In this document: positions 1 to 64,000 of the stretch, in pieces
Layout: each line of letters starts with the position of its first letter
How positions within the stretch are numbered: the first letter of the stretch is position 1
Source of the DNA: Cryobacterium frigoriphilum
Lineage (GTDB): Bacteria; Actinomycetota; Actinomycetes; Actinomycetales; Microbacteriaceae
DNA: 64,000 nt
Direction of reading: 5' to 3'
Assembly: GCF_004403305.1 (NCBI RefSeq)
Contig: NZ_SOHE01000018.1
Span: forward strand, 124,001-188,000
The notes under the pieces: generated by a model
Databases searched by the model: none
Told to the model about the DNA's origin: nothing
The model's input: only the letters and a program-made list of their open reading frames with translations
Translations under genes and position numbers: made by a program

Positions 1-3000
1 TGGGCAGCCTCGTCGTGGCGGCCGTGGTGCTGGGCCTGCACCCACTCGTGCGGCGACTGGCCCCGCGCTTTGGCACGGCCCTCGGCGTGGAACGCGGCAC
101 CGCCCTGGTCATTCAGGTCGCGGCAGTGGGGGTGTCCCTCGTGCAACTCGCGGTTCTCGACGTTCCCCTCGGCGCGGCGCGGGTCTTCGGCACCGCCGGC
201 ATCCTCGCGTGCCTGGCCGTGGTGGCCGCCCTCGGCAGTTGGAACGGACTCCCCCGGTTCTGGAGTTTCGCATCGGGAGCCTTCGCCGTGGCCGCCATCG
301 GCCTGCTTCCGTTCACCCTTAACCTGCCCGACGATGAGTGGATTGTGGCCCTCGTACCGCTCGTCACCGGCGCGGCACTCGTGGGCATCACGGCGCTGCG
401 CGGCACGGTGACGGTCAACCGGCCCAGCCTCGTCTCTGGCGCCTGGGTCGTGGCCCTGCTCGGCGCACTGCCGGCCATCTTTGTTGCCGGACTTCAGCTG
501 TTCTCCCCGGTCCTGACGCTCGTGCTCGGCTTCGAGACACGCGGTTCGGACTCGTTTATCGTGTCGCCGACCCTGGGGCTGGCCACCCTGGGTGGTGTCA
601 CGGCCACCGCGGCGACGCTGTGGGCGCTGTCCCTGCTCGCGCACCGGGCCCTGCTGGTCGACCCGGTGCCGCTGGCCGACCCGGTGCCGCTGGCCGACCC
701 GGTGCTGCCGGTCGATCAGGTGCCGCTGGCCGGTCGGGAAGGCAGGACCCTGACCCTGCGCGGCCGGGCGCTCGCGGCGCTGATGCTCGTGCTGCTGACC
801 GTCACCGGCTGGAACGGCTTCGACCGGCCCGTGCAGTCGATCATCGGGCTCGTGCTGGCCGTCGCGGTGAGCGTGGTACTCGTGCGGGTCGGGTCCGTCG
901 TGCAGGCTGCCGCGGCGGTGCGCACCCCGCTCATCGTTGGCGCACACGTGTTGCTCATGCTCGCAGCAACCGTCGGCTGGATCCAGACCTCATCAACCGT
1001 GTGGGTCGGCGCTGCGGCCGTGCTGGTGCTCGTCGCGGTGGCCCAGACCCGGCCCACCGCGGCGCGCCCGGTCTATTTCGGCGTGGGCTACGCCTACGCG
1101 CTGGTCATCTTCGCGACCGCACTCGATCTCGCGCGCGTGGAGAGCATCGCGGTGCTCTGCCTCACGACGACTCTCGCACTGCTGTTCGCGCTGGCCACGA
1201 CGCTCACGACCTGGCTGACGCCGCGCAGCTGGTACGCCGCGCTGATCGTGACCGCGGTGCCGTTCATGACCGGTGTCGTCGGTGTACTGCTGGAACGCAG
1301 CGGCTGGACCGCGCTCTCGACCGGCGTGGCCTTCGCTCTGGCGTTCACTCTGCTGACCACTCGGCGAACCGGCATGACCCTGCTGCTGCGCTCGGCCGCC
1401 GCCGCGTTGCTCGTGCCGTCTCTCGCCGTCGTGGTCGTCTGCCTCGGCGCGCAGCTGCCCATGAGCGGATCGCCGATCGTACTTCCGATCGTGGCCGTGA
1501 TCGTCGCGGTGACCATTCCGCTGGCCTCGCTGATTGCGCGATGGCTGGCGAATTCGGGTATCTCGATCGCCGAAGCGGATGCCGCCCGTCGCTGGATCGA
1601 GGTCTCCGCCGGAGTCACCGGGGCGCTCGCGGTGCTGCTCGCCCTCGTGCGCATCGCCGCCGGGCTGGAGACGACTTTTCTCGTGCTCGTCATTCTGGGG
1701 GTCGGTGCCGCCGCCAGCGCCCTGACCATCCACCACCGCTTCGCCTGGTGGGCGGCCGCCACGTGCTGGACCGGCGCCCTGTGGTGTGTCTGGGCGATCC
1801 AGGGCGTCGAGGTACTCGAACCGTATCTGCTGCCGCCGGCGCTCGCCGCGGTCGTCGTCGGAGCCTGGCTCACGCATCGCGGCCGGGACGGTGACTCACT
1901 CTTCACCACCGGACTGCTGATCGCCGTCGTGCCGAGCCTGGCCGTGCTCGTCGTCACGCCGAGCAGCCTGGAGGTCACGACGCCCTGGCGCAGCTATGGG
2001 CTGCTCGCGGGAGCGCTCCTGCTCGTGGTGCTCGGCAGAATCGTGATGCGGCATCCGTCGAACGAGACACGGCTCGGCGTGGCGCCCGACCAGCCCGAGC
2101 GGACCGAGCGGACCGAGCGGACCGAGCGGACCGAGCGGACCGAGCGGACCGAGCGGACCGAGCGGACTGAGTATGAACCACAGGCCAACGCTCTGGCCAT
2201 GGCGCCGGACACCGCGGAGCCGCGCGACGGCGGCCGGTTCGAGGCGCTGCGCGCGCTGCGGGCTCCGACGCTGTGGGTCGCCACGATTGCCGCCAGCGCG
2301 GGTGCCGTGCAGGCGGTGCGGTGGGGGCTCGGCGCCGACCGGCTCGACCTGGCCGCCGACGCACTCGTCATGCTGCCCGTGCTCGGGCTGAGCCTCGTGG
2401 CGGTGCTGCTCGCGATCGGGGCCGGCGCCGTTCTGCAGGCGCAACGCGAGCAGGGCGAGCGGGCATTCGCCGCGGTGCCCTCACGCTGGCGCTATGCGGC
2501 CGCGACCTCGTTTCTGGTCGCCGGACCGATCACGGCGATTCGCCATGACCCCTTCTCGATCATCACCCTGATGGCCCTCACGCTCGCCCTGCTCGGCTTC
2601 ATGCTCGTCACGGTCTGGCTCGCGCGCTCCACAGCGGTCTCCCTGCCCCCGGCCTGGTTCATCTTTGCGCTCGCCTGGGGCACGGCCGTCGCGGGCTGGA
2701 GCGAACGAGAGCTGCGGGTCGAAGCCTGGTCCCTGCCGCTCGGCGTTGCCCTGCTGCTGGCGGGAGTGCTGGGCTTGCAACCGAGACCACTGCAACCGAA
2801 AGCACTGCACCCGAATGCACGGCACCCGAATGCACTGCAACCGAAAGCACAGAGCGGCCTCGCCCGCTCGGTCGGAGCAGTCCGCTCGCACTCCTGGGCG
2901 GCCTGGGCCGCCTGGCCCAACGGGTTCAACGGCTCGTGGCGCCTGCTGACGCCGGGCCTCGTGGTCATCTTCCTGCCGTCGATACTCGCGACCGGCACCG

Positions 3001-3284
3001 ACCCACTCACCTGGCGCGCGATCATGGTCATGAGTCTGGCCCTCGCGGCGATCGTGATCGGCTCGGTGCGGCGCCTCGCGGCCCCATTCATCCTGAGCCT
3101 GTGCGTGCTGCCGATCGAGATCATCGTCGTGTTCATGGTGCAGATCGGCCGCACCATCAATCCGCTGCTGTGGTGGATCGCCCTTGCCGTTGCCGGCGCC
3201 GTGCTGCTCGTGATCGCCATCACGAGCGAGCGCAAGGGCAGCGCGGGTACCGGCGTGACCTCCCGCCTGCGCGATCTGACCTAG
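1..3284 (+). CDS. Large polytopic membrane protein, 5' end cut by window
   Basis: The reading frame is open to the left edge, so the true start lies outside; the first in-window start is a GTG at 15, giving at least 1,089 residues. It is an almost continuous series of hydrophobic helices (roughly 25-30 candidate membrane spans) with no recognisable catalytic motif. Actinobacterial proteins of this size and composition are often named SCO7613 C-terminal domain membrane proteins, but I cannot confirm membership. Three soluble loops consist of in-frame tandem repeats: DPVPLA-type hexapeptides (660-731), ERT tripeptides (2097-2168) and LQPKA/LHPNA pentapeptides (2775-2849). Function unknown. It ends in TAG and is followed by a 13-bp tandem repeat before the convergent gabT. 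Confidence 0.75.
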   Translation, partial: GSLVVAAVVLGLHPLVRRLAPRFGTALGVERGTALVIQVAAVGVSLVQLAVLDVPLGAARVFGTAGILACLAVVAALGSWNGLPRFWSFASGAFAVAAIGLLPFTLNLPDDEWIVALVPLVTGAALVGITALRGTVTVNRPSLVSGAWVVALLGALPAIFVAGLQLFSPVLTLVLGFETRGSDSFIVSPTLGLATLGGVTATAATLWALSLLAHRALLVDPVPLADPVPLADPVLPVDQVPLAGREGRTLTLRGRALAALMLVLLTVTGWNGFDRPVQSIIGLVLAVAVSVVLVRVGSVVQAAAAVRTPLIVGAHVLLMLAATVGWIQTSSTVWVGAAAVLVLVAVAQTRPTAARPVYFGVGYAYALVIFATALDLARVESIAVLCLTTTLALLFALATTLTTWLTPRSWYAALIVTAVPFMTGVVGVLLERSGWTALSTGVAFALAFTLLTTRRTGMTLLLRSAAAALLVPSLAVVVVCLGAQLPMSGSPIVLPIVAVIVAVTIPLASLIARWLANSGISIAEADAARRWIEVSAGVTGALAVLLALVRIAAGLETTFLVLVILGVGAAASALTIHHRFAWWAAATCWTGALWCVWAIQGVEVLEPYLLPPALAAVVVGAWLTHRGRDGDSLFTTGLLIAVVPSLAVLVVTPSSLEVTTPWRSYGLLAGALLLVVLGRIVMRHPSNETRLGVAPDQPERTERTERTERTERTERTERTERTEYEPQANALAMAPDTAEPRDGGRFEALRALRAPTLWVATIAASAGAVQAVRWGLGADRLDLAADALVMLPVLGLSLVAVLLAIGAGAVLQAQREQGERAFAAVPSRWRYAAATSFLVAGPITAIRHDPFSIITLMALTLALLGFMLVTVWLARSTAVSLPPAWFIFALAWGTAVAGWSERELRVEAWSLPLGVALLLAGVLGLQPRPLQPKALHPNARHPNALQPKAQSGLARSVGAVRSHSWAAWAAWPNGFNGSWRLLTPGLVVIFLPSILATGTDPLTWRAIMVMSLALAAIVIGSVRRLAAPFILSLCVLPIEIIVVFMVQIGRTINPLLWWIALAVAGAVLLVIAITSERKGSAGTGVTSRLRDLT
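660..731 (+). repeat. 18-bp in-frame tandem repeat, 4 copies
   Basis: Four 18-bp units encode DPVPLA, DPVPLA, DPVLPV and DQVPLA in a loop of the membrane protein. The first two are identical; the last two have diverged. Confidence 0.85.
2097..2168 (+). repeat. 9-bp in-frame tandem repeat, 8 copies
   Basis: Eight units of gagcggacc (the last ends in t) encode an (Glu-Arg-Thr)8 stretch between membrane segments. Near-perfect identity suggests recent expansion. Confidence 0.95.
2775..2849 (+). repeat. 15-bp in-frame tandem repeat, 5 copies
   Basis: Five 15-bp units encode LQPRP, LQPKA, LHPNA, RHPNA and LQPKA in a cytosolic-looking loop of the membrane protein. Confidence 0.85.
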
Positions 3285-3303
3285 TTCGGGGTCCCGGCCC
3301 GCC

Positions 3304-63918: not shown

Positions 63919-63952
63919 GGCTGCCAGCCTAGGTCGCGCCAGCATCAGGGGC

Positions 63953-64000
63953 GACCTCGGAGTCGACCTCGGAGTCGACCTCGGAGTCGACCTCGGAGTC
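63953..64000. repeat. 12-bp tandem repeat running off the window
   Basis: Four identical units of gacctcggagtc reach the right edge. The repeat probably continues; its gene context cannot be seen. Confidence 0.92.

What the first reader, a model, noticed from the sequence alone, without database searches (positions are those of the whole stretch)
1..64000. Window-wide seeding with short tandem repeats whose period respects the reading frame
About 30 arrays of 9-18 bp units occur in 64 kb. Every coding array whose units I aligned has a period divisible by three (9, 12, 15 or 18) and sits at a terminus, linker or loop. Intergenic arrays also use 10, 11, 13, 16 and 17 bp. Many copies are identical, so expansion is recent or ongoing. 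Units differ from locus to locus, so this is not a dispersed element but a process, such as slippage or a repair quirk, filtered by selection on protein frame. Genomes of this GC class normally show few such arrays. A strain-specific mismatch-repair (NucS) or polymerase property could explain it.
Basis: partly seen in the sequence, partly recalled or inferred. Interest (0 to 1): 0.8.

Follow-up and report, generated by a model that had tools for sequence, protein, structure and literature searches.

The report
Fast-changing short DNA repeats, frame-filtered
This Cryobacterium genome carries unusually many short back-to-back DNA repeats, nearly all of those that could be compared being absent from the same sites in its nearest relative, and inside genes almost only repeats that keep the protein reading frame survive; it is a known kind of genome change at unusually high intensity.

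Summary
TRF finds 39 non-redundant arrays (score>=50) in the window, 34 with 9-18 bp units; shuffles give almost none. The genome is a Cryobacterium; its sister in the held set is C. melibiosiphilum. In 644 kb of it, arrays of score>=60 inside genes have periods divisible by three in 91 of 95 cases, intergenic ones in 25 of 62. Of 37 arrays with alignable flanks, 35 have none or one copy of the unit in the sister, so turnover is faster than speciation. Units are mostly unrelated. Density is 3.2-fold (coding) and 3.5-fold (intergenic) above 21 other Cryobacterium genomes. Two-copy duplications differ under 2-fold from low-array species, many-copy arrays about 6-fold; in the sister this shift is only a trend. 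NucS is intact, and a review says it does not correct indels. Best reading: ordinary short tandem duplication plus an expansion-biased slippage regime, probably derived in this clade, filtered by purifying selection on frame. Cause not found. Short-unit satellites in prokaryotes are known; this genome is near the top of the published bacterial range. The window is a local hot spot, 2.5 times the rest.

The parts
653..732 (+). 18-bp x 4.4 array in gene 3-3284 (LADPVP repeats)
   Evidence: own unit not found in sister at 80% identity, a weak 18-bp x 1.9 array is there
2095..2171 (+). 9-bp x 8.6 array in gene 3-3284 (TER repeats)
   Evidence: one copy in sister
2776..2850 (+). 15-bp x 5 array in gene 3-3284
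   Evidence: unit not found in sister
3295..3339 (.). 13-bp x 3.5 intergenic array
   Evidence: one copy in sister, which has 5- and 12-bp arrays there
5546..5594 (+). 12-bp x 4.1 array between the two domains of a PucR-type regulator
   Evidence: one copy in sister
6115..6193 (+). 15-bp x 5.3 array between the two domains of the same PucR-type regulator
   Evidence: unit not found in sister
12559..12601 (.). 15-bp x 2.9 array upstream of gene 12681-13532, in an open extension of its frame
   Evidence: unit not found in sister
14192..14241 (.). 12-bp x 4.2 array between genes, in an open extension of gene 13626-14054(-)
   Evidence: unit not found in sister
16929..16986 (+). 15-bp x 3.9 array in gene 16826-17386 (STAES repeats)
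   Evidence: one copy in sister
23497..23545 (.). 16-bp x 3.1 array across the stop codon of gene 23531-27178(-)
   Evidence: one copy in sister
26779..26820 (-). 21-bp x 2 array in gene 23531-27178(-), kept in the sister
36617..36694 (.). 17-bp x 4.5 array across the stop codon of gene 35852-36634(+)
   Evidence: unit not found in sister
43028..43082 (.). 9-bp x 6.1 intergenic array
   Evidence: unit not found in sister, which has 25- and 7-bp arrays in this interval
43164..43235 (-). 18-bp x 4.2 array just after the YjbR domain of gene 43089-43514(-)
   Evidence: unit not found in sister
44627..44668 (.). 15-bp x 2.8 array upstream of gene 44798-45322(+)
   Evidence: one copy in sister
45654..45734 (.). 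16/32-bp x 5.1/2.5 array across the end of gene 45719-46183(-)
   Evidence: unit not found in sister
46322..46385 (.). 15-bp x 4.3 array in the N-terminal part of ORF 46283-47002 (weak TetR match)
   Evidence: sister keeps two copies or more
48269..48319 (-). 18-bp x 2.8 array in the N-terminal tail of an ankyrin protein
   Evidence: unit not found in sister
48404..48436 (.). 10-bp x 3.3 intergenic array
   Evidence: unit not found in sister
52399..52474 (-). 15-bp x 5.1 array at the predicted N-terminus of a glycosyltransferase; the sister has a different 17-bp x 4.2 array and a 15-bp x 2.6 array at this place
55665..55750 (-). 9/36-bp array in the C-terminal tail of a P450
   Evidence: no orthologous flank in sister
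57023..57090 (-). 12/24-bp array in the N-terminal tail of the same P450
   Evidence: no orthologous flank
57456..57522 (.). 16-bp x 4.2 intergenic array
   Evidence: no orthologous flank
58293..58427 (+). 18-bp x 7.5 array in an oxidoreductase, outside its matched domain
   Evidence: no orthologous flank
58592..58654 (+). 9-bp x 7 array in the same oxidoreductase, outside its matched domain
   Evidence: no orthologous flank
60445..60515 (.). 15-bp x 4.7 array in the N-terminal part of ORF 60362-61261 (creatininase-like)
   Evidence: no orthologous flank
63175..63248 (.). 10-bp x 7.4 intergenic array; the sister has different 32- and 16-bp arrays there
63769..63812 (-). 12-bp x 3.7 array in the N-terminal tail of a DJC28-domain protein
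   Evidence: one copy in sister
63952..64000 (.). 12-bp x 4.1 array cut by the window edge

Best explanation
The arrays are lineage-specific products of a general mutational process acting on whatever sequence is there: a short stretch, most often about 15 bp, is tandemly duplicated once, and slippage at replication then adds copies. In this genome, and probably in its clade with C. melibiosiphilum, the copy-adding step (or the balance of expansion over contraction) is raised, so that duplications that mostly stay at two copies in other Cryobacterium grow to 3-8 copies here. Purifying selection removes arrays that shift a reading frame or break a folded domain, leaving in-frame arrays mostly in tails and linkers and arrays of any period between genes. 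Shown: abundance, frame filter, species-specificity, mostly unrelated units, excess of many-copy over two-copy arrays in this genome. Inferred: that slippage is the copy-adding step, that the shift is in mutation and not selection, and that one clade-level change in replication or repair lies behind it.
For: Shuffles give almost none. Frame filter: coding 91/95 vs intergenic 25/62 divisible by 3, p=4.7e-15. Turnover: of 37 own arrays with anchors, 25 have no copy of the unit at the orthologous place in the sister, 10 have one, 2 have two; of 22 sister arrays, 20 have none or one in own; the array-bearing interval is longer than its counterpart in 26 of 37, equal in 2, shorter in 9. Supply: coding (16.5 vs 5.1 per 100 kb) and intergenic (89.5 vs 25.4) densities rise together, 3.2- and 3.5-fold over 21 other Cryobacterium genomes. 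Expansion: two-copy arrays of 10-20 bp 225/Mb vs 146/Mb in 20 low-array genomes, arrays with >=3.5 copies 118/Mb vs 18/Mb, p=2.6e-8; without the window 219 and 98/Mb, p=3.3e-6. Clade: in a nucS gene tree of 15 genomes own and G003 are sisters (support 1.000) next to G009, G010, G013, G018, which hold 2 arrays of score>=80 in 240 kb.
Against: No causal gene found; Ku, LigD polymerase, PolA-type 5'-nuclease, DnaE, Y-family and NucS do not sort with array density. In the sister G003 the excess of many-copy over two-copy arrays is only a trend (13:50 against 21:167, p=0.086), so the expansion claim rests on one genome. Slower loss of copies would look the same as faster gain. Own and sister arrays co-locate only weakly beyond chance (9 vs 5.4, P=0.077). 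Density is uneven: the window is 2.5 times the rest of the sampled genome (22 in 64 kb vs 81 in 580 kb, p=7e-4), which one genome-wide rate does not explain. The gene tree holds only 15 genomes and one gene. The sample is 664 kb of 4.38 Mb; the gene calls come from a script of my own.
Confidence: 0.62

Rival explanations
1. Relaxed selection: all Cryobacterium make such arrays at the same rate, but this clade (small effective population or more dispensable DNA) keeps them.
For: Two-copy arrays differ less than twofold between own and low-array species, so the birth rate may be nearly the same.
Against: Coding fraction is the same (0.89 vs 0.90) and intergenic density rises as much as coding density; frame-shifting arrays in genes are still almost absent. 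Intergenic arrays should be closest to neutral, so their rise points to supply (inference).
Confidence: 0.18
2. Births come from fill-in of staggered breaks followed by Ku/LigD end joining, not from slippage; the overhang length sets the unit length.
For: Of 29 clean two-copy exact duplications in own, 13 have 0-1 bp of repeat at the junction, as expected without microhomology; Ku and LigD polymerase are present in own and G003.
Against: 14 of the 29 have 4-16 bp at the junction, against under one expected by chance, the sign of misalignment between short direct repeats, though some of these may be nearly three-copy arrays. Ku and LigD are also present in most low-array species (Ku in 38 of 41 genomes, LigD polymerase over cut-off in 22 of 25). 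This explains birth at best, not growth to many copies.
Confidence: 0.15
3. Loss or weakening of NucS mismatch repair raises slippage.
For: 24 of 25 genus genomes searched have no MutS match, so canonical repair of slipped loops is missing; own and G003 share at least one NucS substitution at a position invariant in the 13 others aligned.
Against: NucS is full length with the conserved stretch; its divergence is in line with PolA; a review's table gives a 1-fold indel rate for the M. smegmatis deletion and none detected for C. glutamicum. MutS is absent in low-array species too.
Confidence: 0.03
4. Assembly artefact.
For: The genome is a 93-contig draft.
Against: Own arrays of 10-20 bp units have median length 51 bp and 4 of 142 reach 100 bp, short enough to sit inside ordinary reads; the coding/intergenic contrast in period cannot come from an assembler; single-contig assemblies (G007, G021, G023, G024) hold arrays too, 12-19 bp units among them in all but none as dense save G021.
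Confidence: 0.02
5. The arrays are maintained as adaptive switches (phase variation or tunable linkers).
For: Many lie at N-termini, stop codons or just upstream of genes.
Against: In 35 of 37 comparable cases no array of that unit at the same place in the sister; only weak co-location; frame-shifting arrays, which would switch genes off, are nearly absent inside genes.
Confidence: 0.05

Closest known systems
Short-unit satellites (tandem repeats of 10-200 nt, at least four copies) of prokaryotes, Subirana and Messeguer 2019, PMC6749651 (read in parts 1-4 of 5)
   Same: Mostly unrelated short units scattered over the genome, in coding DNA mostly multiples of three; few species have many. With a rewrite of their finder the own genome outside the window has 15 in 580 kb (26/Mb) against 23.0/Mb for B. 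pseudomallei chromosome II, the densest bacterial replicon in their Table 1.
   Different: Their Burkholderia satellites derive from 6-8 nt microsatellites; here the commonest unit is 15 bp, and 0 of 31 window units of 12-18 bp show a 6-8 nt inner repeat in the one register tested. Cryobacterium is not in their Table 1; I did not see their full species list. My finder is not SATFIND itself.
VNTR/MIRU minisatellites of Mycobacterium and other bacteria (recalled)
   Same: Short tandem arrays, in frame when in genes.
   Different: Denser here, units mostly unrelated; within-species variation could not be measured.
Small variable segments of bacterial species (PMC2884548, search listing and start of abstract only)
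   Same: Short in-gene segments as a source of diversity.
   Different: Not read further; no match of mechanism claimed.

Membership tests
Prokaryotic short-unit satellites (PMC6749651) | At least four copies of a 10-200 nt unit, at least 60% of repeats of one length | tested here: met
   7 in the window and 15 in 580 kb of the rest by a rewritten finder; CRISPR stretch left out
Prokaryotic short-unit satellites (PMC6749651) | Density above 4 per Mb, as in 18 of 119 bacterial species there | tested here: met
   26/Mb outside the window, 34/Mb with it; the paper's figures
VNTR loci | Copy number varies between strains of one species | not testable with these tools
   One genome per species is held; only between-species change was seen
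Dispersed repeat element (transposed unit) | Same unit at many loci | tested here: not met
   4 of 1750 same-period pairs at >=85% (0.45 in shuffled units); one small 19-bp family
NucS-deficient mutator | nucS lost or broken | tested here: not met
   Full-length 234-aa frame, conserved stretch
Slippage at hairpin-forming units | Units more structured than background | tested here: not met
   Units are less structured: -3.9 vs -5.0 kcal/mol coding, p=0.008; -3.6 vs -4.5 intergenic, p=0.054

The most novel reading that the evidence does not exclude
A change in the replication or repair machinery on the stem of this Cryobacterium clade turned ordinary short duplications into growing arrays. The machinery sets a characteristic unit length, near 15 bp in Cryobacterium, while arrays in the Amycolatopsis, Streptomyces and Corynebacterium loci sampled are mostly of 21-60 bp units, so that unit length could serve as a fingerprint of a bacterial replisome.
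Probability: 0.27. Interest if true: 0.65.

Novelty: new member of a known kind. Interest (0 to 1): 0.42.

Why it matters
A sister pair with near-complete array turnover, next to relatives with very few, makes the step from two copies to many testable in bacteria that lack MutS. It would show which enzyme limits growth of 10-20 bp tandem repeats in Actinobacteria, where NucS is reported not to correct indels. It also shows in-frame linker repeats arising and vanishing faster than species do.

Tried and rejected
Events read directly from own-sister gaps: at this divergence only 3 tandem-duplication gaps of 6 bp or more appear in 94 kb of aligned bases, so the approach gave nothing. Hairpin-driven slippage: units are less structured than background. 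NucS loss: gene intact. Ku/LigD: Ku absent in G015-G017 but present in most low-array species. PolA 5'-nuclease domain: matched in 41 of 41; aligned without gaps in that domain in own, G003, G005, G010. Y-family and DnaE: own and G003 show no match of the ImuB-like kind or of the second DnaE class, but nor do many low-array species. Shared hot spots with the sister: only a trend. Rfam: no match in the window at gathering score.

Errors and drops. Searches scanned several frames on the wrong strand; genes 3376-4764, 43089-43514, 52510-54723 and 55648-57186 were then scanned on the right frame, but 23531-27178, 43524-44552 and 48437-50125 (all minus) were not. Script labels say 22 and 21 species where the lists hold 21 and 20 genomes; the report uses the true numbers. 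G019 and G020 were not sampled. Left out before counts: stretch L188 with the CRISPR-like array, periods over 60 bp, and from the coding/intergenic comparison the arrays straddling gene ends (21 in the 644-kb set). In one search, 45 own and 23 sister arrays had no usable flank. The nucS tree lacks G021 (frame not recognised) and the genomes not fetched for it (G001, G002, G006, G008, G011, G012, G014, G015 and others).

Papers: PMC6749651 read in parts 1-4 of 5; PMC8228993 abstract and passages; the rest only as search listings. A search for 'tandem repeats' with 'Cryobacterium' gave one paper, on Acinetobacter plasmids; further searches on bacterial repeats and duplications listed none with this genus in its title. 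This covers open-licence papers only.
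Full report
What and where. The window is G000:C61:124001-188000 of a 4.38-Mb, 93-contig genome. Its relative G003 is Cryobacterium melibiosiphilum Hh39: a 21-kb locus of that named record lies letter for letter in G003 contig C59, which has the same length, 192,871 bases. Own and sister contigs are colinear at 75-91% nucleotide identity over most of the window. The stretch 54.8-61.2 kb has no alignable counterpart there and holds six arrays of score>=60.

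Observation. TRF gives 39 non-redundant arrays at score>=50 and 22 at >=80 in the window; five shuffles average 0.31 and 0 per 100 kb. 34 of 39 have reported units of 9-18 bp. In 644 kb of own sequence (stretch L188 left out) arrays of score>=60 and period 5-60 number 95 in genes (16.5 per 100 kb), 62 between genes (89.5 per 100 kb) and 21 straddling gene ends. Genes were called by a script of my own.

Frame. Coding periods are divisible by three in 91 of 95, intergenic in 25 of 62 (p=4.7e-15). With score>=80, and with L188 still in, it is 49 of 49 against 24 of 54; the sister gives 23 of 23 against 7 of 19 at score>=60. The same filter is seen in the other sets: 53 of 55 coding in 21 other Cryobacterium genomes, 31 of 33 in the order sample, 36 of 36 in Amycolatopsis, 30 of 33 in Streptomyces and 16 of 16 in Corynebacterium loci. 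So the frame rule is general and says nothing special about this genome. Coding arrays lean to gene ends (48 of 95 within 60 aa of an end, 32.3 expected), and in 12 window genes with a match 15 of 18 arrays lie outside it.

Turnover. Of 37 own arrays with anchors on both sides, the unit is absent from the orthologous place in 25, single in 10 and repeated in 2; 45 more had no usable flank, many because they lie outside the colinear part of the contig. Of 22 sister arrays with anchors, 20 are absent or single in own. The own interval is longer in 26 of 37, equal in 2, shorter in 9. At some places the sister has a different array (52399, 63175), but co-location beyond chance is only a trend (9 vs 5.4, P=0.077). 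Units are mostly unrelated between loci.

How unusual. Arrays of score>=80 per 100 kb: window 34, rest of its contig 21, other own stretches 11.6 without L188 (51 in 440 kb), G003 11.9, G021 15 (60 kb only, most of its arrays in one 4.6-kb stretch), the other 20 sampled Cryobacterium 0-7.5, order sample pooled 4.0. Loci fetched around one transporter gene, a biased sample, give 12.1 for Amycolatopsis, 4.9 for Streptomyces, 1.3 for Corynebacterium. With a rewrite of a published satellite finder, own sequence outside the window has 26/Mb, the window 109/Mb, G003 26/Mb, G021 83/Mb (5 in 60 kb), the other 20 Cryobacterium 7/Mb, Amycolatopsis loci 20/Mb, Streptomyces loci 7/Mb; the paper's Table 1 has 23.0/Mb for its densest bacterial replicon, 4.20/Mb for S. 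coelicolor and 89/Mb for its densest archaeon. So the genome is near the top of the bacterial range, not outside what is known.

What differs. Two-copy arrays of 10-20 bp: own 225/Mb, 20 low-array Cryobacterium 146/Mb, order sample 235/Mb, shuffles 48-49/Mb. Arrays with >=3.5 copies: own 118/Mb (98 without the window), G003 67, low-array Cryobacterium 18, order sample 25, shuffles 0; in G009, G010, G013 and G018 together 8/Mb. The ratio of many-copy to two-copy arrays differs between own and the low-array set with p=2.6e-8, 3.3e-6 without the window, and only p=0.086 for G003. So the unusual step in this genome is growth after birth, or slower shrinkage. In a nucS gene tree of 15 genomes own and G003 stand together next to those four low-array species, so high density looks derived in the pair; one gene and 15 genomes are thin ground, and G021 would be a second, separate rise.

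Births. 29 clean two-copy exact duplications fall into two sorts: 13 with 0-1 bp of repeat at the junction and 14 with 4-16 bp (two between); chance alone predicts under one with 4 or more. Both misalignment between short direct repeats and a route without microhomology are therefore likely. Units are not hairpin-prone.

Unit length. Intergenic arrays peak at 15-17 bp in own (21 of 62) and in other Cryobacterium (10 of 29), and are of 21 bp and more in Amycolatopsis (14 of 17) and Streptomyces (14 of 18) loci. Against a simple signature: coding arrays of the other Cryobacterium have units of 21 bp or more in 29 of 55, and Corynebacterium has only 4 intergenic arrays. This is a lead, not a result.

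Genes examined. NucS: match in 40 of 41 genus genomes, own intact. MutS: no match in 24 of 25, two MutS-like frames in G021. Ku: 38 of 41. LigD polymerase over cut-off: 22 of 25. 5'-nuclease of PolA type: 41 of 41. Y-family: own 3, G003 3, range 1-5. DnaE-type: own 2, G003 2, range 2-5. None sorts with density.

Verdict. Real, well above chance, and explained in outline by a known kind of process: short tandem duplication, expansion, and purifying selection on frame. The molecular cause is open.

Noticed in passing
L188 (G000:C89:20001-40000), about 4245-13404: A long array with a 61-bp period and a constant repeat resembling CTCTTCCCCGCGCACGCGGGGGTGTTCCC between changing stretches, read by eye as CRISPR (no CRISPR tool was run); it inflates tandem-repeat counts and was left out.
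   Followed up: partly
L183 6671-6902 and L172 623-699: A dispersed 19-bp unit (CGCTGCGCGGGTGCTGCGC) in three intergenic arrays, the one clear family among otherwise mostly unrelated units.
   Followed up: partly
window 54836-61239: Stretch without alignable counterpart on the sister contig (P450, oxidoreductase, creatininase-like genes) with six arrays of score>=60 in 6.4 kb.
   Followed up: partly
G021:C1:2562580-2564594: Two MutS-like frames side by side in G021, the only one of 25 genus genomes searched with a match.
   Followed up: no
G015, G016, G017: No Ku match in these three; G015 and G016 keep short LigD-polymerase fragments with a stop inside and G017 has none, as if NHEJ was lost in this group.
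   Followed up: no
genus: The ImuB-like plus second-class DnaE pair is patchily present; own and G003 show no match.
   Followed up: no
L145 (G021) 14606-19172: Seven arrays of score>=60 within 4.6 kb, perhaps one or two repeat-rich genes; this makes the G021 density uncertain.
   Followed up: no
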